From Paenibacillaceae bacterium GAS479 (lineage in GTDB: Bacteria; Bacillota; Bacilli; Paenibacillales; Paenibacillaceae): a stretch of 64,000 bases of DNA. Position 1 is the stretch's first letter. Each line of letters opens with the position of its first letter. The notes beneath the pieces were generated by a model. That model had not been told where the DNA came from and did not search any database. It was given only the letters and a program-made list of their open reading frames with translations. Where the stretch lies: the NCBI GenBank assembly GCA_900105225.1, contig LT629764.1, forward strand, positions 1,293,501-1,357,500, in the 5' to 3' direction. Positions 38,959 through 59,395 of the stretch are shown here, in pieces. Both the position numbers and the translations under genes were made by a program.

Positions 38959-39444
38959 TTAGAATTGAACTTTGACTTTCAAAATCTCGACCGATTCTTC
39001 AATCTGGGCAATCAGATTGCGCTGAGCGTCCAGTCTTTCGGTAAACGAGTTCAATGTCGTAATGTCCTCGGCGGTTGCAGCGGCTTGTTTAAACGTTAAA
39101 TCAAGGCGTTTTTCGATACGATCCAGGCGTTCGTTCGTTTGGCGGAATCCCTCGGCTTGTCTACCTTCAAGAGAATCGAATCTGCCTTCTAGCGTCTCGA
39201 ATCTACTTTCCAGAGAATCGAATCTGCCTTCTAGCGTCTCGAATCTACTTTCCAGAGAGTCAAATCTGCCTTCTACCGTCTCGAATCTACTTTCCAGAGA
39301 GTCGAATCTGCCTTCTAGCGTCTCGAATCTACTTTCCAGAGAGTCGAATCTTCCATCGATCAACCCGAGTCGCTCGTCAATGCTTTCCAGACGCGTGTTC
39401 ATGCCTTTTATAACGCCTATTAATTCCTTCAACGTTTCTTCCAC
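38959..39444 (-). CDS. Coiled-coil protein with 14-residue repeats
   Basis: A 161-residue protein that is helical almost throughout. The core is GRFDSLESRFETLE repeated about five times, two heptads per unit with hydrophobic residues at a and d positions. This predicts a rigid homo-oligomeric coiled coil. No signal peptide or membrane span is present. It resembles the many short Bacillota hypothetical proteins annotated as coiled-coil or methyl-accepting-like, without assigned function. The 42-bp DNA repeats (39170-39345) are nearly identical, so the copy number is probably variable between strains. Confidence 0.75.
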   Translation of the reverse strand: MEETLKELIGVIKGMNTRLESIDERLGLIDGRFDSLESRFETLEGRFDSLESRFETVEGRFDSLESRFETLEGRFDSLESRFETLEGRFDSLEGRQAEGFRQTNERLDRIEKRLDLTFKQAAATAEDITTLNSFTERLDAQRNLIAQIEESVEILKVKVQF

Positions 39445-39530: not shown

Positions 39531-40547
39531 TTAAAGCTCTACAATCGCCTTAATGACCTTCGAGGCAGGGTTCAGCCAAACGTCGAACTGTCCAACCATC
39601 TCCTCGAAGCTGGCGCTATGAGTGACATATCGTCCGATATCGATGCCGCCAGCTTGAAGCGCCTCGAGCACACGGTCGAAATCTTCCTTAGTCGCATTGC
39701 GACTGCCCATAAGAGTCATTTCCCGCTTATGGAATTCGGAATCGTTGAACGAAATATCATTTTTCACCAAGCCTACATAGACCAGTGTACCGCCATGAGC
39801 CGCATAAGAGAATGCCGTTTCCATTGACTTGGAATTGCCTGTAGCATCAAACACAATCGTCGGATAATCACCGTCTGTCAAACGCTGGAGCTGCTCCGAA
39901 GCTCCATTCAATGCATTAACGGTATCGTCGACGCCAGCCCATGAGCGGCAAAAAGCCAAGCGCTCGTCATTGACATCCATCGCAATAACTTTAGCTCCTG
40001 CATATTTGGCAAAAGCCATTACTCCTAGCCCAATCGGCCCTGCGCCGATTACGAGCACAGTCTCACCCGCCGTCAGCTTGGAGCGGCGAACAGCATGAGC
40101 GCCAATCGCCAGCGGCTCCAGCATGGCCGACTCATCCAAAGTCAAGCCATCCGTCCGAATCAGATGCGAAATCGGCACAGCAATTCGCTCCCGCATTCCA
40201 CCGTCCGTATGAACGCCAAGCACCTTCATCGAGGTGCAGCAGTTCGTTTTTCCATTGCGACAAGCTACACAGATTCCACAGTGGAAATACGGGATAACGG
40301 CTACCTGATCTCCCACCTGTAGACCATGTTGACCGTCGCTTACCTGTACAATTGTACCGGACAGCTCATGGCCCAGAATCCGGGGATAGGAGAAAAACGG
40401 TTGATTGCCTTTAAAAGCATGCAGATCGGTTCCGCAGATCCCGACTCTGCGAATTTGTACAATTGCTTCTCCCGGCAGCATTTCTGGCTCCGGCAAATTA
40501 TCGCGGTACTGGAACGACTCGACCGCCTCGCATACAATACCCTTCAT
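39531..40547 (-). CDS. Zinc-dependent alcohol dehydrogenase, probable L-galactonate 5-dehydrogenase
   Basis: A 338-residue medium-chain dehydrogenase. Catalytic zinc ligands Cys38 and His60-Glu61 (ICGTDLH, GHE) and structural zinc cysteines (90, 93, 96, 103/104 in CGICVACRNGKTNCC) are present. The NAD-binding GAGPIGLG follows. It belongs to the threonine/sorbitol dehydrogenase group that includes E. coli LgoD (YjjN), which oxidises L-galactonate to D-tagaturonate. Context makes that role likely: tagaturonate reductase and altronate dehydratase genes lie in the same operon. It is the last gene, 4 bases after the aldo/keto reductase. The specific substrate is inference. Confidence 0.88.
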   Translation of the reverse strand: MKGIVCEAVESFQYRDNLPEPEMLPGEAIVQIRRVGICGTDLHAFKGNQPFFSYPRILGHELSGTIVQVSDGQHGLQVGDQVAVIPYFHCGICVACRNGKTNCCTSMKVLGVHTDGGMRERIAVPISHLIRTDGLTLDESAMLEPLAIGAHAVRRSKLTAGETVLVIGAGPIGLGVMAFAKYAGAKVIAMDVNDERLAFCRSWAGVDDTVNALNGASEQLQRLTDGDYPTIVFDATGNSKSMETAFSYAAHGGTLVYVGLVKNDISFNDSEFHKREMTLMGSRNATKEDFDRVLEALQAGGIDIGRYVTHSASFEEMVGQFDVWLNPASKVIKAIVEL

Positions 40548-40551
40548 CGCT

Positions 40552-41511
40552 TCAATGCCCGCCTTCGTTTAACTGAATTTTGGTGTTGTATTCCGGTCTT
40601 CCACTGACCCAGGTTTCATTTAATACAGGCGCTAACAGCTCTTGCACTGCTTTAAGCAGCTCTTTATTGATTGGCTCATCCGTCCACATGGCGTTTTTGA
40701 CGATATTCACCGGATTCGCCGTGCTGACGAGTGTAGTTGGAATGAGCTCATTGGAAGTGGAAAATTGCACCGCAAGCTTGGCAATATCTTCGCCATGCGA
40801 CTCGCAGAATTCAGCAGCAGCCTTGCATGCCGCTTTTAGCTGCGGACTTGCCGGATGCCACTCCGGCGCTCCACGGGTACCAAGCAGACCCATCGAAAGC
40901 GGGGAGGCATTTACGAGGCCAATGCCTTTGGACTCCAGCAATGGCAGCAGATTCAAGAGCGAAGTATCATTTAAGGAATAATGGCAATACGAAATAACAG
41001 CATCAACGTCGACCTTTGGCAGCATATATTCGAACAGTTCCAAAGGCAGGCCGCAAATACCGGTATAACGGATTTTCCCTTGCTCTTTCAATTGCTGCAA
41101 AGCCGGAATCGCTTCCTCGATAATCATGTTTGCCGGCACAAATTCGATATCATGCAGGAAGAGCACATCGATATAATCCGTATGAAGGCGCGCCAAGCTT
41201 TCCTCCACGCTTGCTGTAATTCTTTTCGCCGAAAAATCGAACTCATCCGCTCCATAACGCCCTGCTTTTGTAGAAAGCAAAAACCTGTCACGCGGGATTT
41301 GCTGAATCGCTTTACCAAGCACCGTCTCGGCCTTCGTCAGCCCGTAATAAGGGGACACATCGATCAGATTGATACCTGAATCTACGGCAGCATGCACCGT
41401 CGTGATGGCCTCGCCATCATCTGTATTCCGGAAAACGGAGCCGAGCGATGAAGCGCCAAAACTCAGTGTGGAGACATCTAGTCCCGTTTGTCCCAGCTTG
41501 CGGTATTTCAT
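40552..41511 (-). CDS. Aldo/keto reductase, L-galactose dehydrogenase-like
   Basis: A 319-residue aldo/keto reductase with the full tetrad Asp51, Tyr56, Lys82 and His120. Several long stretches resemble plant L-galactose dehydrogenase closely as I remember that protein: GFGASSLGSVF-like start, SYCHYSLNDTSLLNLLPLL, NASPLSMGLL and PEWHPASPQLKAA. The reaction would be L-galactose + NAD(P) to L-galactono-1,5-lactone. The start overlaps the UxaA stop by one base (TAATG). L-fucose is a possible alternative substrate, since related enzymes oxidise both, but tagaturonate/altronate enzymes next door favour L-galactose. Confidence 0.88.
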   Translation of the reverse strand: MKYRKLGQTGLDVSTLSFGASSLGSVFRNTDDGEAITTVHAAVDSGINLIDVSPYYGLTKAETVLGKAIQQIPRDRFLLSTKAGRYGADEFDFSAKRITASVEESLARLHTDYIDVLFLHDIEFVPANMIIEEAIPALQQLKEQGKIRYTGICGLPLELFEYMLPKVDVDAVISYCHYSLNDTSLLNLLPLLESKGIGLVNASPLSMGLLGTRGAPEWHPASPQLKAACKAAAEFCESHGEDIAKLAVQFSTSNELIPTTLVSTANPVNIVKNAMWTDEPINKELLKAVQELLAPVLNETWVSGRPEYNTKIQLNEGGH

Positions 41512-43046
41512 TAAAGAATCACTCCGTCCTTGAATATCGCTATTTCTCGGAATCCATTCCGCTCGTTATTCGTTTGGCGCTCACCGGAAGCCAGCTCAAT
41601 GAGGTAACTCATTAATTGTTCGCTCATCTCCGGCATCGATTTTCCTTCCAGCAATTGTCCGGCATTGTAATCGATCCAGTTCTTTTTATGCCGCGCAAGA
41701 TCCGAATTGGTAGCAATCTTCACCGTAGGAACGGGTCCGCCAAACGGCGTGCCGCGTCCCGTTGTAAACAAGACGATATGAGCGCCTGCCGCCGACAAAG
41801 CCGTCACGGAAACGAGATCATTTCCCGGCGCTTCCAATAGATTGAGCCCGTTTTGACGGACACGCTCACCGTATTTCACAACATCCTGCACCAAAGCTCT
41901 GCCGCCCTTCTGAGTGCAGCCGAGCGACTTCTCCTCCAGCGTGCTTATGCCGCCAGCTTTGTTGCCAGGAGAGGGATTCTCGTAGATTTCTTGACCATGA
42001 CGGATAAAATACTGCTTAAAATCGTTGATGAGAGTTACGATATTTTCAAAAACGCCTTCATTAACAGCACGATCCATAAGGATCTTCTCCGCTCCGAACA
42101 TCTCTGGCACTTCGGTGAGAATCGCCGTGCCGCCGGCATTGATCAAGGAGTCGGATATGGAGCCGACGAGCGGATTGGCCGTAATGCCGGAGAAACCGTC
42201 GGAGCCGCCGCATTTTAAGCCAATCTTCAATTTGGAAAGAGGCACTGGCTCCCGCTTGAAGTTCGCCCCATAGGAGGCCAGCTCTTGGATCAGCTCCAAG
42301 CCTTTTTCCAGCTCATCCTCTTCGGTCTGAGCGCTCATAAATTTGACGCGACGTTCATCATAAGCACCGATCACTTCTTTGAACAACTCGATCCCATTGT
42401 TCTCGCAGCCAAGTCCGACAACGAGCACTCCCGCAGCGTTGGGATGGTTGACTAGCGAAGCGAGCAGCTTCTGCGTGAACTGCAGGTCGTCGCCGAGCTG
42501 TGAGCAGCCGAACGGATGGGCAAAATGGAACACACCATCGATTCCCTCCCCAGCCAGATCGCTTCCGCGTTTAGCCAAAATTTCGCAAGTTTTGTTGATG
42601 CAGCCAACCGTGTTGATGATCCAGATTTCATTGCGGATGCCAACCTCGCCGCTCGGTCGGAGGTACCCTTGGAACATCGGGACCTCGCTTGGCAGCTTCT
42701 GGTCCTTCTCTTGCTCCTGATCTTTCACTTGCTCATTCTCTTGCTCCTGCTCCGCGATCGGTTCGTAGCTATACTCAAGAATGGATCCAAGTCCTGTCCG
42801 TAGATTATGGGTATGAACCCATGATCCTGCCTCGATATCTTCCTTGGCTTTGCCGATGGAATATCCGAATTTGTATATATCCTGTCCGAGCGAAGTCGGT
42901 ACCGTCAATATTTTGTGACCCTTAGGTATATCCTCGCGGATCGTAAGAAGGAACTCATTCTCTAGCACGAGACTTTCGCCGGAAGCGATGGGCCGAAGCG
43001 CAATGACAACCCCATCCTGATCCGACAAACGAACCCAATCATTCAT
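41511..43046 (-). CDS. uxaA: Altronate dehydratase (UxaA family)
   Basis: A 511-residue hydro-lyase: D-altronate to 2-keto-3-deoxy-D-gluconate. The N-terminal SAF domain (to about 95) and the large C-terminal catalytic domain (CGGSDGFSGITANP, EVPEMFGAE, TTGRGTPFGGPVPT) are intact. They are joined by an Glu/Gln/Lys linker about 25 residues long (EQEQENEQVKDQEQEKDQ). The ATG at 43046 is chosen because GGGGTGAGGGG precedes it. It overlaps the UxaB gene by 8 bases, so translation is coupled. Single-gene fused SAF-UxaA is the typical proteobacterial/Bacillota form; B. subtilis UxaA has the same arrangement. Confidence 0.93.
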   Translation of the reverse strand: MNDWVRLSDQDGVVIALRPIASGESLVLENEFLLTIREDIPKGHKILTVPTSLGQDIYKFGYSIGKAKEDIEAGSWVHTHNLRTGLGSILEYSYEPIAEQEQENEQVKDQEQEKDQKLPSEVPMFQGYLRPSGEVGIRNEIWIINTVGCINKTCEILAKRGSDLAGEGIDGVFHFAHPFGCSQLGDDLQFTQKLLASLVNHPNAAGVLVVGLGCENNGIELFKEVIGAYDERRVKFMSAQTEEDELEKGLELIQELASYGANFKREPVPLSKLKIGLKCGGSDGFSGITANPLVGSISDSLINAGGTAILTEVPEMFGAEKILMDRAVNEGVFENIVTLINDFKQYFIRHGQEIYENPSPGNKAGGISTLEEKSLGCTQKGGRALVQDVVKYGERVRQNGLNLLEAPGNDLVSVTALSAAGAHIVLFTTGRGTPFGGPVPTVKIATNSDLARHKKNWIDYNAGQLLEGKSMPEMSEQLMSYLIELASGERQTNNERNGFREIAIFKDGVIL

Positions 43047-44529
43047 TCCCCTCACCCCTTTCCAAAGCTTCCAATTGCTCAATGACCGATTCCGCCAAGC
43101 CGCTCCAGCTAGCGGGATCTATACCCCAAAGCTCCTTGTCAGCAAGGATGGCCCCAACAGCGTCGGCATTGGATGCGCCTGCAGCTTGCCAATAGCCAGC
43201 GATCCGATCAAGGGCGTTCAAATCGTCTCGAACGACATAACGCATTCCTTTCAACGACATTCCCGTAAATTCGCCATCCATGCCCTTGGTTACTTTGTAA
43301 TAACGAAGCAGCGCCGCCAAACCAAGGGCAAGCCTCGCAGGTATCGGCTCTCCCGACTCAGCGTAATGAGCTAGGGTCGGCAGCAGCCGAACGCTGAATT
43401 TGCCCATCGAGTTCATGGCAATATCGGCAAGCCGATGGCGGATGTAAGGATTTCCAAAGCGGTCGAATACGCTGTCCGCATAGGCCTTCAGCTCATTTTC
43501 CGCATAGGGCAAGGCTGGAACGATATCGCTCCCTACCGTCTCTCGAACAGCTGCGCCTAACTCAGGATGTTCCATGAACGCCCGGACATGCTCGATGTCA
43601 TGCAAAATGCCTAGTGGAGCCATCCATGTATGCGCGCCGTTGAGAATACGCACCTTCTGTTGCTGAAACGGCTTCAGATCATCCGTCCAGTGAACGTTCA
43701 ACCCGGCCTTGCGCAGCGGAAGAACGGCTTCCAGCTCAGGCTCGGCCTCAATCGCCCATAGATGATAAGGCTCTGCCGTACACAGCATCTCATCACGGTA
43801 TCCCCACTCCTGGAACCAAGCTTCAGCTTGAGCTTCCTCCGGGTATCCAGGTACAATGCGATCAACAAGCGAGCTCAGGAAACGATTATGTTGATTAATC
43901 CAGTCATGGAATGCGGCCGGGAACTCCCAGTCCTTGGCGTACTGTAGAACAGCAGCCCTCAATACATCCCCGTTCCGTTCAAGCAGCTCGCATGGAAGCA
44001 GAATCAGCCCCTTCTCAGGATCACCCCTGAACGCTTTATAGCGTTCGTACAGCAAGTAGGCTATTTTTCCAGGATAGGACTGGATCGGTCCCCCGCTCAG
44101 CTCCTCTGGACGATAAACGAGCCCGGCTTCCGTTGTATTGGAGATGACGATGCGAAGCTCTGGACTTGAAGCTAGCTCAAGGAGGCGCTTCCATTGCGAA
44201 TAGGGATCGAACGCTTGCGAGAACACCCCAATCGTTTCCTTCCGACACACCTCCTGGCCATTTTCCAGCCCTTGAGTAACAAGGGTGTACATGCCGTCTT
44301 GTGCGGCCAGCTTCTCGATTTTGGCTCTTCCAGATGGCCGGGGCTGGACCACCGCAATGCTTCCTGAGAATAATCCCTGGTTTCTACAAACTTGAATCAT
44401 CCAGTCTGTGAATCCACGCAGAAAATTGCCCTCGCCAATTTGCAGGATGGTCACTGGCGCTCCATGAACTTCGTCCAGCCTACCTCTGCCCCTCTCGTCT
44501 AGCACCGCCCGGTTCAATAACAAACTCAT
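43039..44529 (-). CDS. uxaB: Tagaturonate reductase (UxaB; mannitol dehydrogenase superfamily)
   Basis: A 496-residue protein of the polyol-specific long-chain dehydrogenase family. It carries ILQIGEGNFLRGFTDWMI near the N-terminus and the active-site segment KVRILNGAHTWMAP, in which the Lys, Asn and His are catalytic. The reaction is D-tagaturonate + NADH to D-altronate. Length fits E. coli and B. subtilis UxaB. It starts with ATG overlapping the stop of the lactonase gene (ATGA). The neighbours (UxaA downstream, lactonase upstream) fit a role in converting tagaturonate made from L-galactonate rather than galacturonate, as no UxaC isomerase is present. Confidence 0.92.
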   Translation of the reverse strand: MSLLLNRAVLDERGRGRLDEVHGAPVTILQIGEGNFLRGFTDWMIQVCRNQGLFSGSIAVVQPRPSGRAKIEKLAAQDGMYTLVTQGLENGQEVCRKETIGVFSQAFDPYSQWKRLLELASSPELRIVISNTTEAGLVYRPEELSGGPIQSYPGKIAYLLYERYKAFRGDPEKGLILLPCELLERNGDVLRAAVLQYAKDWEFPAAFHDWINQHNRFLSSLVDRIVPGYPEEAQAEAWFQEWGYRDEMLCTAEPYHLWAIEAEPELEAVLPLRKAGLNVHWTDDLKPFQQQKVRILNGAHTWMAPLGILHDIEHVRAFMEHPELGAAVRETVGSDIVPALPYAENELKAYADSVFDRFGNPYIRHRLADIAMNSMGKFSVRLLPTLAHYAESGEPIPARLALGLAALLRYYKVTKGMDGEFTGMSLKGMRYVVRDDLNALDRIAGYWQAAGASNADAVGAILADKELWGIDPASWSGLAESVIEQLEALERGEGNE

Positions 44530-45359
44530 AACTTGTAAAACTCCTTCGCATTAAGACCAAACAGCTTGGCGCGTTCGCCCTCTCCCCAATGAGCCGGGAT
44601 CGCTTCCTGCAAAACCGCCACAACGGCATCATACTCTGCCGCCAGCAAACATACCGGCCAATCGCTGCCAAACATGACTCGATCAGGTCCGAATAGTTCT
44701 AATACATGCCCGATATAAGGCTTGAAATCTTCCGTTTTCCAGCCCTTGTGATCGCCTTCCGTCACCATTCCCGACAGCTTGATATAAATATTGGGATGCT
44801 TCGCGATTTCTTTCATCGATTTCAACCAATTGTCTATTTCACCGTTGCCAATCTCAGGCTTGGCAATATGGTCGATGACCCCGCGCAGCCCTGGAACCTC
44901 ATTCAAAAGCTGGACGGTATGCTCCAGCTGACGGGACAACAGCAGCAAATCAACTGGAACGTCATCCGCTGCGTATCCTTTCAGCGCTTCCACAAATTCA
45001 GGCTCCAAAATCCGGCTGGAATCCGGCATTTCCTGAATCATAATGCGGAAGCCTTTGAATTTATCATGTTTATTGAAGCGGTCAAAATGTTGGCGATGCG
45101 CGGGATCGAATAAATCCAGCCAGCCGACCACGCCGAGTATGTTGGAATCCTGCTGATCCGCGAGAGAGAATAGATACTCTGTTTCCTCTAAAGTAGGCGC
45201 CGCCTGAACGGCAACCGTGCCGTCCAATCCATGTTTCGTTAAGTGAGGCGCAAGATCCGCCGGCAAAAAGTCCCGATAAAGAACAGGGATGTCCGGCGTA
45301 ATCCATCCATAATCACCGCGTTCAATTCGCCAATAATGCTGATGAGAGTCGATTCGCAT
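44526..45359 (-). CDS. COG3618 amidohydrolase, sugar lactonase (L-galactono-/L-fuconolactonase type)
   Basis: A 277-residue TIM-barrel hydrolase. Metal ligands His6 and His8 in SHQHYW, a His in GVIDHIAKPE and the Asp in GSDWPV are all present. COG3618 members open the lactones of L-galactose, L-fucose, L-rhamnose and related sugars. In this operon it would hydrolyse L-galactonolactone to L-galactonate. The frame is open nine codons further upstream, but AAGGAGG lies seven bases before the chosen ATG (45359) and overlaps the upstream alternatives. It is the first gene of the catabolic operon, and the AraC regulator is divergent across about 130 AT-rich bases. Confidence 0.9.
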   Translation of the reverse strand: MRIDSHQHYWRIERGDYGWITPDIPVLYRDFLPADLAPHLTKHGLDGTVAVQAAPTLEETEYLFSLADQQDSNILGVVGWLDLFDPAHRQHFDRFNKHDKFKGFRIMIQEMPDSSRILEPEFVEALKGYAADDVPVDLLLLSRQLEHTVQLLNEVPGLRGVIDHIAKPEIGNGEIDNWLKSMKEIAKHPNIYIKLSGMVTEGDHKGWKTEDFKPYIGHVLELFGPDRVMFGSDWPVCLLAAEYDAVVAVLQEAIPAHWGEGERAKLFGLNAKEFYKL

Positions 45360-45487
45360 CTCCATTCCTCCTTCTGTTAGTTTCATTATAAATAATCAAA
45401 ATTTACAATGATATGATCTATATATTCATATTTATACTCTAATTTGATATTATGATGGAACGAACTTATTCATTGGAGATGATCCGT

Positions 45488-46363
45488 ATGGAGCCCTTTC
45501 GCAAGCCCTTTATAGGAGATCCGTTATTTCCCTTTCATATCATCCATCAGCATGTCAAACATCCCGAGGATGAGCTGCCCGATCATCTCCACGAGCACTT
45601 TGAGCTCGTTTATATCCATCAAGGAACAGGTACCTTTTTTATCGATAACACGCTGTATGAGAAAAAAAGCGGAGACCTGTTCATTATTCCCGGCAATACC
45701 GTACATCGCTCCCTGCCGGATAAGCTCAATCCGATTATTTCCACGGCGGTTTTTTTTGCGCCTGCTTTTGCCGCCGGGGAAATCTACGATCATTCCTACT
45801 CGCTGCTGCAATGCTTCGATATCGCTCGTGGCCAAAAACATTATAAATTCGAGCTGACGGAAACAGTGCGTTCAAGCGTTGAAAGCTCTATGGAATGGAT
45901 TCATAAGGAGCAAACCGATCAGCTTGAAGGGTATCGGGCTTCAATTCGTCTTGAGCTCGGAAGACTGCTGTTACATTTGAACCGCCATCTGGCGCATCAT
46001 TTTACCCCTAGAGCAGGGGATAAACGAATAGGACCCTCTTGGATTAAGAGGGCCCTGCTTGAAATAGATGCGCAGCCTGGACTAGCGTATAGCTTGGTCG
46101 AATTTGCCGAGAAATCTTCTGTTTCTCCACCTCATTTTTCACGAGTATTCAAGCAGTTTACAGGGATGAACGTTACTGATTATGTGAATGCCAAACGAAT
46201 TATTCAAGCCAAAGGTTTACTGCTGGAATCCGACGAGAGCATCGCCTCCATTGCGGAGAAATGCGGGTTCATGAGCATTCCGCATTTCCACCGGATTTTT
46301 AAGAACTTAACGGCTTCAACTCCAGCCGCTTACAGGCGGAAAAACTTAGTTGAGCAGCCGTGA
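45488..46363 (+). CDS. AraC-family regulator with cupin sensor domain
   Basis: A 291-residue protein. The N-terminal half is a cupin-like sugar-sensing domain with DHLHEHFELVYIHQGTGTF, GDLFIIPGNTVHR. The C-terminal 100 residues hold two helix-turn-helix motifs (SLVEFAEKSSVSPPHFSRVFKQFTG; SIASIAEKCGFMSIPHFHRIFK, both shown only as landmarks). ATG 45488 is preferred because GGAG lies 9 bases upstream; ATG 45452/45455 lacks a ribosome site. It is divergent from the L-galactose-type operon and probably activates it in response to a sugar intermediate. Confidence 0.9.
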   Translation: MEPFRKPFIGDPLFPFHIIHQHVKHPEDELPDHLHEHFELVYIHQGTGTFFIDNTLYEKKSGDLFIIPGNTVHRSLPDKLNPIISTAVFFAPAFAAGEIYDHSYSLLQCFDIARGQKHYKFELTETVRSSVESSMEWIHKEQTDQLEGYRASIRLELGRLLLHLNRHLAHHFTPRAGDKRIGPSWIKRALLEIDAQPGLAYSLVEFAEKSSVSPPHFSRVFKQFTGMNVTDYVNAKRIIQAKGLLLESDESIASIAEKCGFMSIPHFHRIFKNLTASTPAAYRRKNLVEQP

Positions 46364-48739: not shown

Positions 48740-49657
48740 TCACTTTCCTCTTACTTCCCACTTCGTAATTCGGCCCTGCGGCACCCATTCAACAACAAAC
48801 ACACAGTCATCGTCTACACATAAGCCATGCGGAGAGATGAAACGTCCGTCTACCCAATTCGCCGGGGGAATGCCAGGCCATCCAGGAACTTGCCAGATGG
48901 AGGGGTTTTCGCCCGTATGCGCGGAATGCTGGAAGCTGCCGTCCGTAATCGTAATTCGGCCGTTCAGGTCCGGTAGGATAAATCCGTCTTCACCAAAGGG
49001 AACCAAGTCGCAAGGGAGCAGGAAATCACCGCCATAAGCTTCAATAAAGGTGCCGTCCAGTTGGAAAGCGACGAAGCGCTGGTTCCGTCGGTCTGCAACG
49101 TATACTATTGGCTCCTCAGGACGAGTATCGATGCTCAATCCATGGGGCTCGTTTAAGGCATGCTCTGCCCCTTCCTTGCCACCCCAGTGCTGCAGCCAAC
49201 GACCCGTTCGGTCAAAACGATGAACCGTATACTGTCCGTAACCATCTACTACGTAGATGTCGCCATTGGGGGCAACATCGATGTCCGTCGGCATATAATG
49301 CCCCGGTGTCGGGTAGATGTCGGGAAGCGGCGGGACGCCTACCGTAAACACCTCTTCCCCATCCAGCGTGTACTTGGCTATTAGATGGCGTGAAATATCG
49401 GTTAAGTACAAGTACTCTTGGCCATCCTCCTCCCTGCGGAGATGCATACCGTGAGCCCCTGCTGCAAAATCGCTTCCCCATGAATGCGAAAAATGTCCCG
49501 AACAATCAAACACGGCTACCGCATGCTGGCTCATGTTGAAAACATATACTCGCTTTTGAGAATCTACGGCGATTCCATGCGTAAATCCGAGCGAAACGTC
49601 TTCCGGAAGCTTCGCCCAGCCCGGCACGAGATGAAGGCTAATCGTTGAATTAGGCAT
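48740..49657 (-). CDS. NHL-repeat beta-propeller protein, amidating-lyase (PAL)-like
   Basis: A 305-residue protein built of about six NHL/YVTN-like blades. Four blades carry His-Gly motifs: FTHGIAVD, GAHGMHL, EPHGLSID and SPHGLCVD. In peptidyl-alpha-hydroxyglycine alpha-amidating lyase, histidines in equivalent HG motifs bind zinc, and a Tyr in the NHL region is catalytic; PTDIDVAPNGDIYVVDGYGQ here is the matching style of segment. No signal peptide is present, so it is cytosolic. The ATG overlaps the end of the dioxygenase gene by 8 bases. A two-step role (hydroxylation, then cleavage) with that dioxygenase is inference. Confidence 0.8.
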   Translation of the reverse strand: MPNSTISLHLVPGWAKLPEDVSLGFTHGIAVDSQKRVYVFNMSQHAVAVFDCSGHFSHSWGSDFAAGAHGMHLRREEDGQEYLYLTDISRHLIAKYTLDGEEVFTVGVPPLPDIYPTPGHYMPTDIDVAPNGDIYVVDGYGQYTVHRFDRTGRWLQHWGGKEGAEHALNEPHGLSIDTRPEEPIVYVADRRNQRFVAFQLDGTFIEAYGGDFLLPCDLVPFGEDGFILPDLNGRITITDGSFQHSAHTGENPSIWQVPGWPGIPPANWVDGRFISPHGLCVDDDCVFVVEWVPQGRITKWEVRGK

Positions 49658-50450
49658 GGCGCTTCACCAATAGCGGGAACAAAGGTCCTTTTAACGGCTG
49701 ATCCTTCTCCAAATTCGATCCCTCCGTAACGATATGACCTTTTCCGTTATACGTGATCCCATCAGGCATATAAATAATGGCTAACGCCCGTCTTGGACGG
49801 TCGGTCGTATTCGCATGTGCATAGTGGAAAGTTAATCCGTTATGAAACGTACAGCTGCCTGCCTTAAGCGGTACGACAACGGGTTTTTGGTCGTCCAATT
49901 GCCCGCCTTCCACATAATCAAATATATTTTGAGGCTCCAAAAAGCTGATTCCGGTTAACTTGCCGAGTTTATGCGACTTGGGTACAAAAGCCATGCAGCC
50001 GTTTTGCTCATTGACGTCATCCAAGGCAATCCAGATGGAAAGCATGCCCCGCTCGGCCTCATTGACCGGCCAATAGGGAGTATCCTGATGCCAAGGAGTT
50101 GGTTTAGAATCACCTGGCATTTTCCAAAGTCCATGGTCATGGAAAAAGCGAATTTCATTGGACCCGGTCAAATCCAGCGCGGCCTTCGCAAACTTTTCAT
50201 GAAAGCTGAATTTGCCCATCCCGCCATGGTCTCTCCAGGTATTCACCTTCTGATTCAACACCCGATAGTAAGCGCCGCCATTTTTATCGGTCTTTACAGA
50301 ACGGCCGCTATCCTCCTGCATCGCTTCCTCCAGATACTCCCGAAGCTGTTCCAGCTCTTCGTCCGTAAGCATATTTTCTACTTTGACGAATCCATTCTCG
50401 CGATAGAAAGAAACCTGTTCATCAGTAATCTGCGCTGCAGGGGTACCCAT
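49650..50450 (-). CDS. Phytanoyl-CoA dioxygenase-family Fe(II)/2OG hydroxylase
   Basis: A 266-residue non-heme iron dioxygenase. Iron ligands are His and Asp in PWHQDTPYW and the distal His in LTFHYAHANTT; the 2-oxoglutarate-binding Arg is in RPRRALAI. It hydroxylates an aliphatic carbon of a small molecule using O2 and 2-oxoglutarate. The upstream open frame is ignored because AAGGAGG lies nine bases before ATG 50450. It overlaps the NHL gene by 8 bases and is divergent from an AraC regulator, so the pair is an inducible small-molecule pathway. Bacterial members act on ectoine, ureas, amino acids or sugars; no specific substrate can be given. Confidence 0.9.
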   Translation of the reverse strand: MGTPAAQITDEQVSFYRENGFVKVENMLTDEELEQLREYLEEAMQEDSGRSVKTDKNGGAYYRVLNQKVNTWRDHGGMGKFSFHEKFAKAALDLTGSNEIRFFHDHGLWKMPGDSKPTPWHQDTPYWPVNEAERGMLSIWIALDDVNEQNGCMAFVPKSHKLGKLTGISFLEPQNIFDYVEGGQLDDQKPVVVPLKAGSCTFHNGLTFHYAHANTTDRPRRALAIIYMPDGITYNGKGHIVTEGSNLEKDQPLKGPLFPLLVKRHA

Positions 50451-50537
50451 CCATTGTAGCCTCCTTGGCTTGTGATATGCCCCTATCATACAAGGCGATG
50501 ATTCAAAGGAGGATGGAGAGAAATCGGAAGTTTTTGT

Positions 50538-50613
50538 AATAAAGTCGAATGTGAAAATGCTTGTTGATGCCACCTGGGATTAATGGTTTAATTCAACTTA
50601 GAATAAAGTCGAA
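50538..50613. promoter_or_regulatory. Duplicated 12-mer in the dioxygenase/AraC divergent region
   Basis: AATAAAGTCGAA occurs exactly at 50538-50549 and again at 50602-50613, in the same orientation, 64 bases apart. This is the form expected for direct-repeat AraC half-sites that control both genes. Confidence 0.5.
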
Positions 50614-50631
50614 GACTAGGATGTGATTGTT

Positions 50632-51567
50632 ATGGCCAACATCTATCGAGTCGACTACAAAACGTTATCCCCTTATGTCAGATTTATTCACGAGATCGTC
50701 GTTCATCCGGGAGCTCATCTCCACGAACGGTATATTTATGATCATGAGTTCATATTTGTAGTCAGCGGATCAGGCTGGCTTAGAATCGAAACCAATAAGT
50801 ATCCCATGGAGCCGGGAGATTTGTTGTACATACGCCCGCATAAGCTGAATGAGATGTATGTATTCGAAAATGAGCCGATGCACTGTTTTGCCGTCCACTT
50901 CGATTATATGTTTCTTGGCGAATCAACCGATTTCTCCCCTTCCGTCTATTTAGGCCGGAGGCAAGGAGAGATCATTCCGGATGTGAATTGGCTAAAAGCC
51001 CGTCCGTATGCTGAATTAATGGATCTGGATATTCCCGAGCGTATGACGCCAAGCCGCATGCATTCGTTTCATGAAGCGTTCAAGGAGTTGGTCTTGCACT
51101 TTCAAGAGTCGAGAGCCGATGCTCATATTTGGCTGAAGTCCTCCTTGCTGCGACTGTTAGGGCTTGTTCATCACGAGCTGACCACTAAAGAAGGAATAAG
51201 GATTCATAATTCCCATGCCGATTTGATGCTGGAAGCTGTTCAATTTATGCAACAGAATTACACGCAAAAAATCGATTTGCCTATGTTAGCCGCAAGAGCC
51301 AATCTTTCTCCTAAATATTTTGGCTCTCTTTTCAAACAAGCGACAGGACAATCCGTATCCCAATATTTGCTCGGTCTGAGAATCGAGGAGGCAAAGCGAA
51401 TGCTTCGCTTGCATAAATTTACGATCAAAGAAATTGCCGATGGGGTAGGAATCCCCGATTTGTTCTACTTCAGCAAGTTATTCAAAAAGATGGAAGGGCT
51501 TTCGCCTAAAAAATATGCAGAGTCAATGCCGCCGCTTATTCATAGCTTCTCTCCGAATCCGGGCTAA
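50632..51567 (+). CDS. AraC-family regulator with cupin domain
   Basis: A 311-residue protein. The N-terminal cupin part has HPGAHLHERYIYDHEFIFVVSG (landmark only) and PGDLLYIRPHKLNE. The C-terminus has two helix-turn-helix motifs (LPMLAARANLSPKYFGSLFKQATG; IKEIADGVGIPDLFYFSKLFKKM). ATG 50632 is preferred over GTG 50623; AGGA lies about 10 bases upstream. It is divergent from the dioxygenase/NHL operon and likely regulates it. A strong terminator follows. Confidence 0.9.
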   Translation: MANIYRVDYKTLSPYVRFIHEIVVHPGAHLHERYIYDHEFIFVVSGSGWLRIETNKYPMEPGDLLYIRPHKLNEMYVFENEPMHCFAVHFDYMFLGESTDFSPSVYLGRRQGEIIPDVNWLKARPYAELMDLDIPERMTPSRMHSFHEAFKELVLHFQESRADAHIWLKSSLLRLLGLVHHELTTKEGIRIHNSHADLMLEAVQFMQQNYTQKIDLPMLAARANLSPKYFGSLFKQATGQSVSQYLLGLRIEEAKRMLRLHKFTIKEIADGVGIPDLFYFSKLFKKMEGLSPKKYAESMPPLIHSFSPNPG

Positions 51568-51802: not shown

Positions 51803-53722
51803 TCAACTAATCGGCTCAACGGCCGCCTTCAGCTCCACTTCAAGCTCTTGAAGGAAGGATAACTTCTGGCTCTCCGAGCTGCCAAGCTCCTCCGCCATGA
51901 TGCGGACGACCTGTTCCTTCCACTTCATCACGGCTGCCCGATTGAAAAAGAGCGCCCCAGTCCGGCGGATCAAAAAATCCGCTGGCTTGACGGCCATCTC
52001 ATGCCGAATGGCGTAAAGCAGCTCCGCATGTAACAAGCGTGGCATTTCATCGCTCCCGGCGACTGTTCGGGACCCGGCGTGACTGCGAATAGATGCGGGC
52101 GATATGCCTGCGCGCCTGTTGCGTCCGTCGGATGGTAGTAGTTGCAGAACAGCATCCGCATTACTCCCATACCGCGCGGCCAATCGCTCCGCCTCCGTTG
52201 CGCCAAGGCCAAGCTGCCGACCACGTTCCGCTGCGGCAGCGGTTGCCGCAGCGAACCCGGCTGACCCGCCGACATCGCCGCCGGAGATGGGCATCGTCCG
52301 TGTATGACAGCGGCCGAACGGACCGAGCCCCTCCGATTCCAGTTCCCCAGCGACAAGGTCCGTAACCGTCTCGGCCATCTTGCGATAGCCGGTCAGCTTA
52401 CCGCCGGCTATCGTGAATAATCCCGATTCCGAGTGGAAAATCTCATCCCGCCGAGATATTTCAGATGGGCTTTTGCCTTCTTCGTAAATTAGCGGTCTGA
52501 CACCTGCCCAACTGGACTCTACGTCAGCTTCCGTCAAGCCAATGCTTGGAAACATAACAGCTGCCGCCTGTATTACATACTCGCGGTCCTCCGCTGTCAT
52601 CCGCGGATGGGTCGCATCGCCGTGGTAGTCGGTGTCGGTCGTGCCGACATAAGTTTTGCCGTCCCGCGGGATGGCGAACATCATTCGCCCGTCCGGTGTA
52701 TCAAAATAAACCGCCTGCCGCAGCGGGAAGCGGGCCCCGTCAAAAACAAGATGGATGCCTTTGGTAAGCCGCAGAGTTTTGCCCTTGCGGGAGCCATCCA
52801 GCTCACGAATTCCATCAACCCAAGGACCGGTCGCATTCACGATGCGGCGTGCATGCAAGAGGAAGCTCCTGCCGCTGATTGTATCGACAGCCTTGATGCC
52901 GCAGAGCCGTCGCCCGCTGGCCGCACTGCCGCTGGATTCAGCTTTTCCGGCATCATGGGCATCCCTGCTTAGGGCGTTCCCTATCCGCTGACCGGCCCTC
53001 TCACTGCCGCCGAGGCTGCCCTCCTCATAAAGCAACTCTTCCGCCTTGACGTAGTTCACGGCGAGGGCGCCAAGCTCGGCTGCTTTTTTGACCACCTCGA
53101 TCGTCAGCCTGGCATCGTCTGTGCGGTACTCGACATAGTACCCGCCGCCCTTAAGCCCTTCCCGGCGCAGCAGCGGCTCCCGCTCCGCAGTGGTAGCAGC
53201 TCCCAGCATCCGCCGCCGCTCGCGCAGCTTAACGCCGGCCAAACGATCATAAAGCGCCAGACCAAGCGAGGTGGACCATCTGCCGAATGTACCTCCTTTG
53301 TAAATCGGCAGCAGCATCCATTCCGGGGTCGTCACATGCGGACCGTTCTCGTAAACTACGGCTCGCTCCCTGCCGACCTCGGCTACCATCCGCACCTCTA
53401 ACTGCTTGAGGTAGCGCAGACCGCCATGGATAAGCTTCGTTGATCGACTAGAAGTGCCACTCGCAAAATCCTGCATCTCCACAAGCGCCACGCGCATTCC
53501 TCGCGACTGGGCGTCGAGCGCAATGCCCGCACCGGTAATCCCTCCTCCGATGACGAGCAGATCCCACTGCTCCGTTTCCAATCTACCGAGCATAGCTTCT
53601 CTGTTAGCAGCGGAAAAATCCCCTTCCCCGTGCGATGCAGAGCCAGCCATACCTGCTTTTGCTTCCACATCTGCTTTTGCTTTCATACCTGCTTTTACTT
53701 CCATCCGTTCACTGCTTTCCAT
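51803..53722 (-). CDS. glpD: Aerobic glycerol-3-phosphate dehydrogenase
   Basis: A 639-residue FAD enzyme that oxidises glycerol-3-phosphate to dihydroxyacetone phosphate at the membrane and feeds electrons to menaquinone. The FAD-binding LLVIGGGITGAGIALDA, STKLIHGGLRYLKQ, FAIPRDGKTYVGTTDTDY and GGKLTGYRKMA segments are all present. It is longer than B. subtilis GlpD (about 555 residues). The excess is a 40-residue hydrophilic N-terminus with VKAGMKAKADVEAKAGMAG iterations and two Gly/Ser/Ala/Arg-rich insertions (about 235-275 and 545-580). The extension is translated, as AAGGAGGG lies 8 bases before the ATG. It is 190 bases downstream of glpK with no clear terminator between. Confidence 0.94.
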   Translation of the reverse strand: MESSERMEVKAGMKAKADVEAKAGMAGSASHGEGDFSAANREAMLGRLETEQWDLLVIGGGITGAGIALDAQSRGMRVALVEMQDFASGTSSRSTKLIHGGLRYLKQLEVRMVAEVGRERAVVYENGPHVTTPEWMLLPIYKGGTFGRWSTSLGLALYDRLAGVKLRERRRMLGAATTAEREPLLRREGLKGGGYYVEYRTDDARLTIEVVKKAAELGALAVNYVKAEELLYEEGSLGGSERAGQRIGNALSRDAHDAGKAESSGSAASGRRLCGIKAVDTISGRSFLLHARRIVNATGPWVDGIRELDGSRKGKTLRLTKGIHLVFDGARFPLRQAVYFDTPDGRMMFAIPRDGKTYVGTTDTDYHGDATHPRMTAEDREYVIQAAAVMFPSIGLTEADVESSWAGVRPLIYEEGKSPSEISRRDEIFHSESGLFTIAGGKLTGYRKMAETVTDLVAGELESEGLGPFGRCHTRTMPISGGDVGGSAGFAAATAAAAERGRQLGLGATEAERLAARYGSNADAVLQLLPSDGRNRRAGISPASIRSHAGSRTVAGSDEMPRLLHAELLYAIRHEMAVKPADFLIRRTGALFFNRAAVMKWKEQVVRIMAEELGSSESQKLSFLQELEVELKAAVEPIS

Positions 53723-53912
53723 TCCGTGACCCTCCTTACCACCTGGGCAAACGCAATAGATTCCACACCCAGTCCTGATGGTGATCGATTTTAGGATAAA
53801 AAAGCCGCAAGCTGCCGAGCTACTTGTCCTATCAAAGACAGCTCAGCGCTTATGGGGTTGATTTCTGCCGAGCGAATCAGCTTGATTTATCATTAAACGT
53901 GCCGAACCACCA

Positions 53913-55989
<2,077 letters not shown>

Positions 55990-57398: not shown

Positions 57399-58046
57399 TT
57401 AGCTGCTCTGTCGACCCAAACTACGCACAGCCTCCGTAAACTCGCGCGCACGCTGCTCCATGAGCTCGAATCGGCCCTCCCGGGCCCATTGCAGGTTGAC
57501 CAGCTTGCTGCCGAGACCGACAGCATCTGCTCCAGCTCGGAAATAATCACCGATATTGTCCAGATCAACCCCGCCCGTAGCCATCATCGGGATACCATTC
57601 AACGGTGCTTTCAGCTCTTGCAGATAGCGATGGCCGAGCGAAGCCATCGGGAATATTTTCACCGCTTCGGCGCCAGCTTTCCAAGCGCGTACAATTTCGG
57701 TCGGCGTCATGACGCCTGGCCAAACCGATACGCCCCTCTCTGCGCCGTATGTTATGACCGCCTCGTCTAGATTAGGAGAGATCAGGAACTGCGCCCCTGC
57801 CGCGATTGCCTCGCGAGCCCCCTTCTCATCCAGTACCGTGCCAGCTCCAACGAAGGCCAAGCCATCCAGCTGCTCCCGCCAACGCGCCAAAATCGGTAGC
57901 GCAGCGTCCGTGTTCATGGTCACTTCCATGAGGCGGATACCTCCGTCTGCCAGCGCCCTGGCAGCACGATCCGCTTCGGCTTGCCCGATGCCACGGAAAA
58001 TGGCGACGATCTTTTCCTGCTGCAGCGTGTCCAGCAATGAGCCCAT
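57399..58046 (-). CDS. eda: KDPG/KHG aldolase
   Basis: A 215-residue class I aldolase that splits 2-keto-3-deoxy-6-phosphogluconate to pyruvate and glyceraldehyde-3-phosphate. Glu41 (MEVTMNT), FVGAGTVLD, the Schiff-base Lys130 in AVKIFPM, and ATGGVDLDN are all conserved. ATG 58046 is chosen over GTG 58052, as AAGGGGGAG lies seven bases ahead. It starts two bases after the mutY stop and so is translationally coupled to a DNA-repair gene, an odd combination. It could finish the L-galactose/altronate route of the operon at 39.5-45.4 kb once KDG is phosphorylated. Confidence 0.94.
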   Translation of the reverse strand: MGSLLDTLQQEKIVAIFRGIGQAEADRAARALADGGIRLMEVTMNTDAALPILARWREQLDGLAFVGAGTVLDEKGAREAIAAGAQFLISPNLDEAVITYGAERGVSVWPGVMTPTEIVRAWKAGAEAVKIFPMASLGHRYLQELKAPLNGIPMMATGGVDLDNIGDYFRAGADAVGLGSKLVNLQWAREGRFELMEQRAREFTEAVRSLGRQSS

Positions 58047-58048
58047 AC

Positions 58049-59395
58049 TCACACTCCCCCTTCTTCCACCCCAGTTGCGTCCCAGTAGTCATATAGAATT
58101 TTGCCAAAAAGATTCGGAAACGCATAGTCCCGCATCTGATTCCGGCCAATCCAACGATACCCGTCGGGCTCATCCGCCGAATAAGGCGCGGATGACTCCG
58201 CGGCAGGATAAGGCGCGGACGAATATGGCGCGGACGAATAAAGCGCAGCCGACTCTGCGGCAATTGCGGCTGGCTGCTGCGCAACTTCTGCGTGCAGAGC
58301 GCCAGCTTGGCGTAACCTAGCTGGCCATACGGCGCGGCTTGCGCCAGTGTCCAGCTCCGCCACATACACCCTCATCATCCAGTGTAGATGGCTGAATGTA
58401 TGCTCCTCCGCCGCGTGCCAGCGGCGGGCAACAACACGCAGGCCGCTCTCCGCCTGCAGCCGCTGCAGCAGCTCAGCGGCATCCTCGGCCTGCCGCTCCA
58501 CCGGCGGCTCGGCAGCCGCCGCCAGCTTGGCCGCTCGGCCGCGCGGCTTAACCGCTGGCTCGTCCAGCTGCACATGGGGCAGCTCCCAAAGGCTGGCCAG
58601 CAGGCCGCTGTCCGGGCGCTGCCGGATCAGCACCTTTCCGGCATGCTCGCCGGTGCCTTCAATGATTGCGGCAAGCCGCGCCTGCGGCTTTGGCGGTTTT
58701 GCCTTTGCCTTGATTGGCAGCTCCGTCTCGCGTCCAGCCAGTCGTCCTGCGCAATGAATCATAACCGGGCAAGTCAAGCATCCAGGCGTGCGCGGCGTGC
58801 ATACTAGAGCTCCCAGCTCCATCAACGCCTGATTGAAATCTCCAGCCGCTCCTTCGGGAATAAGCGATGCAGCAAGCTTTTCCATACCAATTCGCGTGCT
58901 CGGCTTGGCGATGTCCTCATCTCGATTAAAATACCGCGACAAAACGCGCATAACATTGCCGTCAACAGCAGGCTCTGGCCGATTGAATGCAATGCTCATA
59001 ATGGCACCGGAAGTATAGGGGCCAACGCCCTTCAAGGCGGACACAGCCGCCTTGTCATCCGGCACCTGACCACCGTAACGCTCCATGACTTCACGAGCAC
59101 CTGCTTGTAGGTTGCGGGCACGCGAATAATAGCCAAGACCTTCCCAATGTTTCAACACATCGGGTTCAGGCGCTTCGGCAAGCGCCTGCAATGTCGGAAA
59201 GCGGTTCATGAACCGCTCATAATAAGGAATTACGGTATCCACCCGTGTCTGCTGGAGCATGATCTCTGACACCCAGACTCTGTAAGCCTCACGGTTTTGC
59301 CGCCAGGGTAGCGTTCGCTTGCTCATTCGGTACCAGGCCAGCAATTCCCGGCTGAAATAACTGGCTGCGGTGTCCACCGCGCTTGATAAATTCAT
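58049..59395 (-). CDS. mutY: A/G-specific adenine glycosylase
   Basis: A 448-residue DNA-repair enzyme that removes adenine opposite 8-oxoguanine. Glu44 in SEIMLQQTRV and Asp in AVDGNVMRV are catalytic; the helix-hairpin-helix LKGVGPYTSGAI and the 4Fe-4S cluster motif Cys-X6-Cys-X2-Cys-X5-Cys (CTPRTPGCLTCPVMIHC) are complete. The C-terminal NUDIX-like domain contains low-complexity insertions, including repeated SSAPYSSAPYPAAESSAPYS near residues 405-425. ATG 59395 has GGAAGGAG eight bases ahead. It heads a two-gene unit with eda. Confidence 0.95.
   Translation of the reverse strand: MNLSSAVDTAASYFSRELLAWYRMSKRTLPWRQNREAYRVWVSEIMLQQTRVDTVIPYYERFMNRFPTLQALAEAPEPDVLKHWEGLGYYSRARNLQAGAREVMERYGGQVPDDKAAVSALKGVGPYTSGAIMSIAFNRPEPAVDGNVMRVLSRYFNRDEDIAKPSTRIGMEKLAASLIPEGAAGDFNQALMELGALVCTPRTPGCLTCPVMIHCAGRLAGRETELPIKAKAKPPKPQARLAAIIEGTGEHAGKVLIRQRPDSGLLASLWELPHVQLDEPAVKPRGRAAKLAAAAEPPVERQAEDAAELLQRLQAESGLRVVARRWHAAEEHTFSHLHWMMRVYVAELDTGASRAVWPARLRQAGALHAEVAQQPAAIAAESAALYSSAPYSSAPYPAAESSAPYSADEPDGYRWIGRNQMRDYAFPNLFGKILYDYWDATGVEEGGV

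What the first reader, a model, noticed from the sequence alone, without database searches (positions are those of the whole stretch)
39531..46363. Complete L-galactose to KDG operon in a Bacillota
Seen in sequence: five genes with overlaps or tiny gaps (lactonase, uxaB, uxaA, aldo/keto reductase, zinc dehydrogenase) and a divergent AraC gene; uxaC is absent. The aldo/keto reductase shares long segments with plant L-galactose dehydrogenase (PEWHPASP, SYCHYSLND). Established: a Bacteroides vulgatus pathway uses an L-galactose dehydrogenase, a COG3618 lactonase and an L-galactonate dehydrogenase to make tagaturonate, and UxaB/UxaA convert tagaturonate to KDG. Inference: the cluster assembles all five steps in one transcript. 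L-galactose occurs in some algal and plant polysaccharides, so this may mark an unusual niche.
Basis: partly seen in the sequence, partly recalled or inferred. Interest (0 to 1): 0.75.

Follow-up and report, generated by a model that had tools for sequence, protein, structure and literature searches.

The report
L-galactose breakdown operon in a soil-type bacterium
Five neighbouring genes in this Paenibacillus-like bacterium most likely encode the conversion of the rare plant and algal sugar L-galactose into an ordinary sugar-acid intermediate, a pathway known from a few other bacteria and found here, in interchangeable pieces, in many relatives.

Summary
In detail: five tightly packed minus-strand genes (lactonase, uxaB, uxaA, aldo/keto reductase, LgoD-type zinc dehydrogenase) and a divergent AraC gene. 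The reductase's five best solved-structure matches are L-galactose dehydrogenases (308-347 bits, then 120). The zinc enzyme, UxaA and UxaB resemble E. coli LgoD, UxaA and UxaB more than RspB, GarD and UxuB. uxaC is absent from the whole genome. All five enzymes lie together in 20 of 80 named Bacillota loci. In 59 genomes, all 26 with the zinc dehydrogenase have UxaB or the tagaturonate epimerase UxaE, against 12 of 33 others. GH95-type genes lie within 10 kb of the reductase in 9 of 22 relatives (0.19 expected). Best reading: L-galactose to KDG by the oxidative route known from Phocaeicola and Luteolibacter, in a Bacillota version with a lactonase and all five steps in one operon; UxaE may be an alternative exit in relatives. 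No activity was measured. The 'unusual niche' is not supported, since relatives are common. The operon has no transporter, and the KDG kinase is weakly identified.

The parts
44526..45359 (-). COG3618-type (Amidohydro_2) sugar lactonase, probably L-galactono-1,5-lactonase; longest ORF starts at 45386
   Evidence: Pfam PF04909 153.5 bits; NCBIfam L-fucono-1,5-lactonase 231 bits, below the cut-off of 400; two solved relatives, 4dlf and 6uvz, both named Amidohydrolase 2; DSHQH at residue 13, GSDWP at 240 of the long ORF
43039..44529 (-). UxaB, D-tagaturonate reductase (tagaturonate to D-altronate)
   Evidence: NCBIfam NF002969 561 bits, cut-off 359; 40% to E. coli UxaB (327 bits) against 29% to UxuB (123 bits); no close solved structure, best about 103 bits
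41511..43046 (-). UxaA, D-altronate dehydratase (altronate to KDG); TTG-started ORF extends to 43082
   Evidence: 52% to E. coli UxaA (543 bits) against 31% to GarD (214 bits); Pfam GD_AH_C, GD_AH_second, SAF
40552..41511 (-). Aldo/keto reductase of the L-galactose dehydrogenase family
   Evidence: five best PDB matches are named L-galactose dehydrogenase (308-347 bits), next 120 bits; D51, Y56, K82, H120 present
39531..40547 (-). LgoD-type zinc dehydrogenase, probably L-galactonate 5-dehydrogenase (L-galactonate to D-tagaturonate)
   Evidence: 42% to E. coli LgoD (268 bits), 34% to RspB (170 bits); of 25 other genomes with it it lies near the AKR in 18 and beside UxaB away from an AKR in 3; cysteine cluster at residues 90-104
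45452..46363 (+). AraC-type regulator with cupin domain, divergent; likely start at 45488
   Evidence: Pfam HTH_18, AraC_binding, Cupin_2; homologue at 35% identity or more within 10 kb in 53 of 80 named reductase loci
45443..45455 (+). conserved TTTGATATNNTGA element between the AraC and lactonase genes, candidate operator or promoter element
   Evidence: specified letters identical in 6 of 6 aligned loci; only exact match in the window, 0.05 expected; at most 1 mismatch in 20 of 53 AraC-linked loci, against 6 of 1060 GC-matched stretches
57399..58052 (-). KDPG/KHG aldolase beside mutY, possible downstream step; outside the operon
   Evidence: TIGR01182 eda 176 bits, cut-off 156; one of two PF01081 matches over the cut-off in the genome

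Best explanation
A dedicated catabolic operon for L-galactose (and any L-galactonate formed on the way). The reductase oxidises L-galactose to L-galactono-1,5-lactone, the lactonase opens it to L-galactonate, the LgoD-type dehydrogenase oxidises C5 to D-tagaturonate, UxaB reduces this to D-altronate, and UxaA dehydrates that to KDG, which a PfkB kinase and a KDPG aldolase encoded elsewhere turn into pyruvate and glyceraldehyde-3-phosphate. The AraC regulator is divergent and probably switches the operon on. Shown here: gene content, conserved order, family placement by sequence, no UxaC or UxaE match in the genome, co-occurrence of the dehydrogenase with a tagaturonate-consuming enzyme, GH95-type neighbours in relatives. 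Inferred: each reaction, the inducer, one transcript, and the sugar entering as L-galactose.
For: The reductase matches L-galactose dehydrogenases far above other AKRs. E. coli comparisons favour LgoD, UxaA and UxaB over RspB, GarD and UxuB. UxaC and UxaE have no match in the genome, so the LgoD-type enzyme is the only source of tagaturonate identified. Only 3 of 59 genomes have UxaB (E 1e-60) without UxaC (G000, G006, G007), and all three carry this five-gene operon. 21 of 23 reductase genomes have the ZnDH, against 5 of 36 others (p 2e-9). Every ZnDH genome has UxaB or UxaE (26 of 26, against 12 of 33), also when stratified by UxaC (p 0.0017 and 0.0013) and at genus level (p 0.0003). Three relatives carry ZnDH beside UxaB away from an AKR (L159, L160, L161). 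All five enzymes recur together in 20 of 80 named loci and in 4 of 22 unnamed ones (L039, L040, L055, L056; the two sets overlap). PF14498 (GH95 N-terminal domain) genes lie within 10 kb in 9 of 22 relatives (expected 0.19); GH95 includes alpha-L-galactosidases (PMC4491172; PMC7176698). No L-fucose isomerase match in this genome.
Against: No activity, growth or transcript was measured. L-fucose, D-arabinose and L-galactose share C2-C4 configuration and a fungal L-fucose dehydrogenase also takes L-galactose (PMC12370193). The lactonase is nearest to an L-fucono-1,5-lactonase model, though below its cut-off. GH95 and GH29 are mainly fucosidase families, and the Thr/His marker is contested. This genome's one PF14498 match is divergent and about 373 kb away. 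No transporter in the operon; the best KDG kinase candidate scores 184 bits against a cut-off of 400. One relative (L060) has UxaA, UxaB and AKR but no ZnDH or lactonase nearby. Of the 80 named loci 58 have no UxaB and none has UxaE within 10 kb; their genomes were not searched for one elsewhere. Genomes are related, so the p-values overstate independence.
Confidence: 0.85

Rival explanations
1. The first two enzymes serve mainly L-fucose (or D-arabinose), with L-galactose as a side substrate.
For: GH29, GH95 and FucU mutarotase genes beside the reductase in several Bacillaceae loci; lactonase closest to an L-fucono-lactonase model; three of the four GH29-linked loci have reductase and lactonase but no ZnDH within 10 kb (L119, L135, L142).
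Against: UxaB and UxaA are enzymes of six-carbon hexuronate breakdown, and none of the five genes is a fuconate dehydratase (the rest of the genome was not searched for one). ZnDH accompanies the reductase in 21 of 23 genomes. In L144 and L158 a fucI-type isomerase, kinase and aldolase set, which would handle L-fucose, stands beside the cluster. LguA, placed by its authors with known L-galactose dehydrogenases, showed no activity on L-fucose or D-arabinose (PMC12632266).
Confidence: 0.07
2. The real substrate is L-galactonate or its lactone taken up as such, and the reductase is accessory.
For: lgoD with uxaA and uxaB (or uxaF) forms L-galactonate loci in Halomonas (PMC5507952), and ZnDH lies beside UxaB without a neighbouring AKR in L159, L160, L161.
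Against: The reductase is inside the tight operon, and all five genes lie together in 20 of 80 named loci (loci chosen by the reductase); no acid transporter is in the window's operon.
Confidence: 0.05
3. A dual L-glucose/L-galactose pathway as in Luteolibacter LG18.
For: LguA and LguD of that strain accept both sugars (PMC12632266).
Against: L-glucose use there needs the LguG C-4 epimerase, encoded outside the cluster; it was not searched for here. LguA prefers L-galactose 40-fold.
Confidence: 0.03

Closest known systems
Luteolibacter sp. LG18 lgu pathway (lguABCDEF; PMC12632266)
   Same: L-galactose-oxidising dehydrogenase, altronate dehydratase, tagaturonate reductase and L-galactonate dehydrogenase in one cluster, with a divergent Btr-type activator gene
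   Different: The LG18 cluster lists no lactonase and includes KDPG aldolase and a fructokinase; the strain is Verrucomicrobiota. Its authors report finding no organism with six orthologues lacking lguG, while noting Bacillota sequences in the LguA group.
Phocaeicola (Bacteroides) vulgatus L-galactose pathway
   [quoted passage not shown] a B. finegoldii locus shows AKR-lactonase-FucP-ZnDH
   Different: Against that B. finegoldii locus our ZnDH (32%) and lactonase (25% over 152 residues) are not of the same type; UxaB and UxaA are in our operon and not in that locus
E. coli / Halomonas L-galactonate pathway (lgoD, uxaA, uxaB; PMC5507952 passages)
   Same: LgoD-, UxaA- and UxaB-type enzymes, same three steps
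   Different: Starts at L-galactonate; in E. coli lgoD, uxaA and uxaB lie apart
Plant L-galactose dehydrogenase (ascorbate pathway; role recalled)
   Same: Same AKR family by sequence (where all five top chains bear that name)
   Different: Biosynthetic role in plants; here in a catabolic gene cluster
Catenovulum adriaticum plasmid locus (L205)
   Same: mannitol-dehydrogenase-family reductase, ZnDH (51%), lactonase (42%) and AKR (56%) in a row, UxaA (51%) nearby
   Different: Its reductase is UxuB-like (40% to UxuB, 27% to UxaB); arylsulfatases lie nearby; isolated from algae

Membership tests
L-galactose dehydrogenase (AKR) | sequence nearest to L-galactose dehydrogenases, clear of other AKRs | tested here: met
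   347, 324, 321, 319 and 308 bits, then 120 bits
L-galactose dehydrogenase (AKR) | AKR tetrad Asp-Tyr-Lys-His (recalled family knowledge) | tested here: met
   D51, Y56, K82, H120; invariant in 14 sequences
L-galactose dehydrogenase (AKR) | oxidises L-galactose | not testable with these tools
   needs an assay
LgoD-type L-galactonate 5-dehydrogenase | closer to LgoD than to other zinc dehydrogenases | tested here: met
   268 bits to LgoD, 170 to RspB, 217 and 189 to the Acidisarcina and Bacteroides ZnDH; other E. coli members were not compared in the same run; best PDB match is RspB, 166 bits
UxaB tagaturonate reductase | NCBIfam NF002969 above cut-off | tested here: met
   561 bits, cut-off 359
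UxaA altronate dehydratase | closer to UxaA than to GarD | tested here: met
   543 against 214 bits; NCBIfam lists only galactarate dehydratase, 271 bits, below its cut-off of 731
L-fucono-1,5-lactonase NF052480 | score above curated cut-off | tested here: not met
   231 bits, cut-off 400; filed only as a COG3618/Amidohydro_2 lactonase (COG number recalled)
Luteolibacter lgu pathway | KDPG aldolase in the cluster | tested here: not met
   aldolase at 57399-58052, 11 kb away
Luteolibacter lgu pathway | LguG C-4 epimerase for L-glucose | not tested
   not searched for
Bacteroides-type L-galactose locus | orthologous lactonase and ZnDH | tested here: not met
   44 bits over 152 residues; 32% identity (against B. 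finegoldii L206, not B. vulgatus itself)

The most novel reading that the evidence does not exclude
L-galactose from plant cell walls is a widespread carbon source for Paenibacillaceae and some Bacillaceae. It is handled by a modular system: a core (L-galactose dehydrogenase, lactonase, LgoD-type dehydrogenase) making D-tagaturonate, which leaves either by UxaB/UxaA or, in genomes lacking UxaB, by the epimerase UxaE towards fructuronate and UxuB/UxuA. In many relatives it is fed by linked GH95 enzymes acting as alpha-L-galactosidases.
Probability: 0.55. Interest if true: 0.55.

Novelty: new variant of a known kind. Interest (0 to 1): 0.42.

Why it matters
In the papers seen here two bacteria are credited with oxidative L-galactose catabolism (Phocaeicola vulgatus, through a citing paper; Luteolibacter). 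The 2025 Luteolibacter paper reports finding no organism with an L-galactose-only gene set. This operon and its relatives suggest such sets are common in Paenibacillaceae, offer functions for three genes that records name only generically (aldo/keto reductase, amidohydrolase family, zinc-binding alcohol dehydrogenase), and predict that GH95 enzymes next to them may be alpha-L-galactosidases rather than fucosidases. They also show UxaB and UxaA kept without UxaC, a case where galacturonate use would be predicted wrongly.

Tried and rejected
Galacturonate use by this UxaAB pair: rejected, since the genome has no UxaC match. The Thr/His rule for GH95 specificity: 32 of 32 AKR-linked GH95 have Thr (at least two contigs counted twice: L148/L051, L149/L052); of 20 PF14498 genes from AKR-less genomes 7 have Thr, 7 His, 1 Ser (probably a false match) and 5 no motif. 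The rule is contradicted in print (PMC8245568 passages), so it is weak support only. UxaB tree: AKR/ZnDH-linked UxaB cluster (6 changes against 14.4 in shuffles), but the label was partly set by how loci were chosen, the tree warns of long branches, and the fork that gathers 26 of 32 linked rows has support 83; not leaned on. Promoter/terminator scan: no more sites than shuffles. Reductase in viral contigs: 16 stretches matched a pattern, none a relative; one 6.2-kb 'Bacteriophage sp.' record matches at the same 50.8% and query span as B. finegoldii, probably misfiled bacterial DNA (not followed). No structure prediction was run, because sequence matches to solved L-galactose dehydrogenases were strong. 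Papers: searches. For Paenibacillus with L-galactose dehydrogenase (13) or L-galactonate (60), 2 and 5 papers were listed: PMC5069468 (passages) concerns 3,6-anhydro-L-galactose and agar, PMC12370193 (passages) is fungal, the others were seen in the listing only. One search found none. Most subscription papers are not held, so absence in print is not established.

L204 was left out of the UxaB tree as a duplicate of L161. G008's UxaE match below the cut-off was not counted.


Full report
OBSERVATION. The reported genes are all present with tight spacing, and domain searches give the named families. The window is 1,293,501-1,357,500 of a 5.52-Mb single-contig genome. I place it in or near Paenibacillaceae by inference: the best-scoring named reductases are from Cohnella and Paenibacillus (at most 80% identity; records very near the window may be left out).

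WHAT EACH ENZYME IS. The reductase's five best matches among solved structures are all named L-galactose dehydrogenase (308-347 bits), followed by a drop to 120 bits. The AKR tetrad residues are present (the tetrad is recalled family knowledge). Against E. coli K-12 proteins compared in one run, the zinc dehydrogenase is 42% identical to LgoD (L-galactonate oxidoreductase in the K-12 record) and 34% to RspB; UxaA is 52% to UxaA and 31% to galactarate dehydratase GarD; UxaB is 40% to UxaB and 29% to UxuB, and passes the NCBIfam tagaturonate reductase cut-off (561 against 359). The lactonase is an Amidohydro_2 enzyme below the L-fucono-lactonase cut-off (231 against 400).

PATHWAY LOGIC. L-galactose, L-galactono-lactone, L-galactonate, D-tagaturonate, D-altronate, KDG. 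The steps from L-galactonate follow the published E. coli and Luteolibacter scheme (PMC12632266, whole main text read; supplement not read). UxaAB works after UxaC in galacturonate use (PMC6353982, passages), but this genome has no match to UxaC, UxaE or L-fucose isomerase. It has two KDPG aldolase matches over the cut-off and one below; one lies in the window beside mutY. Of eight PfkB matches seven were typed; the best KDG kinase candidate (4006919-4007806) scores 184 bits against a cut-off of 400, so that step is uncertain.

CONSERVATION. Of 58 sampled relatives 22 have the reductase at E 1e-60 or better. In their neighbourhoods (22 loci of up to 16 kb): zinc dehydrogenase in 18, lactonase in 13, UxaA with UxaB in 6, all five in 4. 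All 80 record titles name Bacillota (ranks recalled), but the best 80 of a query built from Bacillota were bound to.

THE TWO EXITS. Five reductase-bearing genomes lack UxaB, which at first speaks against the pathway. All five carry UxaE (PF16257), described as a D-tagaturonate/D-fructuronate epimerase in Thermotoga (PMC6353982, passages). Over 59 genomes, ZnDH-positive ones have UxaB only 18, UxaE only 7, both 1, neither 0; ZnDH-negative ones UxaB only 7, UxaE only 5, neither 21 (p 1.4e-7). Among ZnDH-positive genomes UxaB and UxaE nearly exclude each other (p 1.2e-5). Galacturonate use could confound this, so I stratified by UxaC: UxaC-positive 22 of 22 against 11 of 18 (p 0.0017), UxaC-negative 4 of 4 against 1 of 15 (p 0.0013); at genus level 17 of 17 against 8 of 18 (p 0.0003). 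Related genomes are not independent, so these are guides. Physical linkage of UxaE is rare: inside the cluster in L053 and L163, 2 of 112 loci examined and none of the 80 named; NCBIfam has no match for the L053 protein. A tagaturonate-epimerase-family gene lies in an Acidisarcina plasmid cluster with ZnDH, FucP and AKR. Of the 25 other genomes with ZnDH, it is near the reductase in 18 and beside UxaB away from a reductase in 3 (L159, L160, L161). The other four were read: two have a lactonase near it (L163, L165), two neither reductase, lactonase nor UxaB (L162, L164). Together this supports D-tagaturonate as the ZnDH product.

SOURCE OF THE SUGAR. PF14498 (GH95 N-terminal domain) genes lie within 10 kb of the reductase in 9 of 22 relatives, 0.19 expected from their counts and genome sizes. 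One linked protein scanned matches all three GH95 Pfam models (L150), another has GH95 structures as best solved relatives (L047). GH95 includes alpha-L-galactosidases active on corn xylan material (PMC4491172 and PMC7176698, passages) and alpha-L-fucosidases, so context alone does not decide. In Aquibacillus and Gracilibacillus loci (L144, L158) fucI-type isomerase, FGGY kinase and class II aldolase genes stand beside the cluster (each family typed in one of the two loci), which argues that the reductase branch serves something other than L-fucose there. The window's own operon has no GH95, transporter or mutarotase gene; the genome's single PF14498 match is divergent and about 373 kb away.

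REGULATION. A TTTGATATNNTGA element at 45443-45455 is conserved across six aligned intergenic regions. It is found with at most one mismatch in 20 of 53 AraC-linked loci, against 6 of 1060 GC-matched stretches (exact in 7 of 53). The controls are stretches of the same loci, probably mostly coding, so a promoter element of the AraC gene is as likely as an operator.

COMPARISON. The chemistry is that of Phocaeicola vulgatus (Hobbs 2014, not held; known through PMC12632266) and Luteolibacter. Against a B. finegoldii locus with AKR, lactonase, FucP and ZnDH in a row, only the reductase is clearly of the same type (51%). A Catenovulum plasmid from algae has a UxuB-like reductase, ZnDH, lactonase and AKR in a row and UxaA nearby, with arylsulfatases upstream. 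The Luteolibacter authors write that they found no organism with six orthologues lacking lguG and that Bacillota sequences occur in the LguA group. The present operon differs by having a lactonase and no aldolase in the cluster. Whether it counts as their missing case by their criterion (high identity to LG18 proteins) was not tested.

VERDICT. A real, conserved, probably complete L-galactose-to-KDG operon; a Bacillota variant of a known pathway, with a testable two-exit model in relatives. Interest is moderate: the pathway is known, while the distribution, the modular exits and the UxaC-free use of UxaAB are less expected.

Noticed in passing
38959-39444 (repeat 39160-39351): Coiled-coil protein gene just downstream of the operon, with a 42-base tandem repeat, 4.6 copies, 95% match; homologous neighbours in L039 and L040.
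   Followed up: partly
48740-51567: NHL-repeat protein, PhyH-type dioxygenase and a second AraC gene; a 59% PhyH homologue also sits beside the reductase cluster in L083 (1 of 102 loci).
   Followed up: partly
51803-55469: Type 1 glycerol-3-phosphate oxidase/dehydrogenase-like gene (below the model cut-off) and glpK (above cut-off) in tandem.
   Followed up: no
L207:4863-10933: Acidisarcina polymorpha plasmid pACPOL3 carries tagaturonate-epimerase family, ZnDH, FucP, LacI and AKR genes together.
   Followed up: partly
L205:2531-17688: Catenovulum adriaticum plasmid from algae: arylsulfatases upstream of reductase-ZnDH-lactonase-AKR-GH2 and an altronate dehydratase gene on the other strand; may link L-galactose use to sulfated algal polysaccharides.
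   Followed up: partly
MT837805.1 3911-4837: A 6.2-kb 'Bacteriophage sp.' record encodes a reductase with the same identity and query span as the B. finegoldii hit; probably misfiled bacterial DNA.
   Followed up: no
L119, L135, L142: Bacillaceae loci with lactonase, reductase, GH29 and GH95 but no ZnDH within 10 kb; the dehydrogenase may be elsewhere or the substrate may be L-fucose.
   Followed up: no
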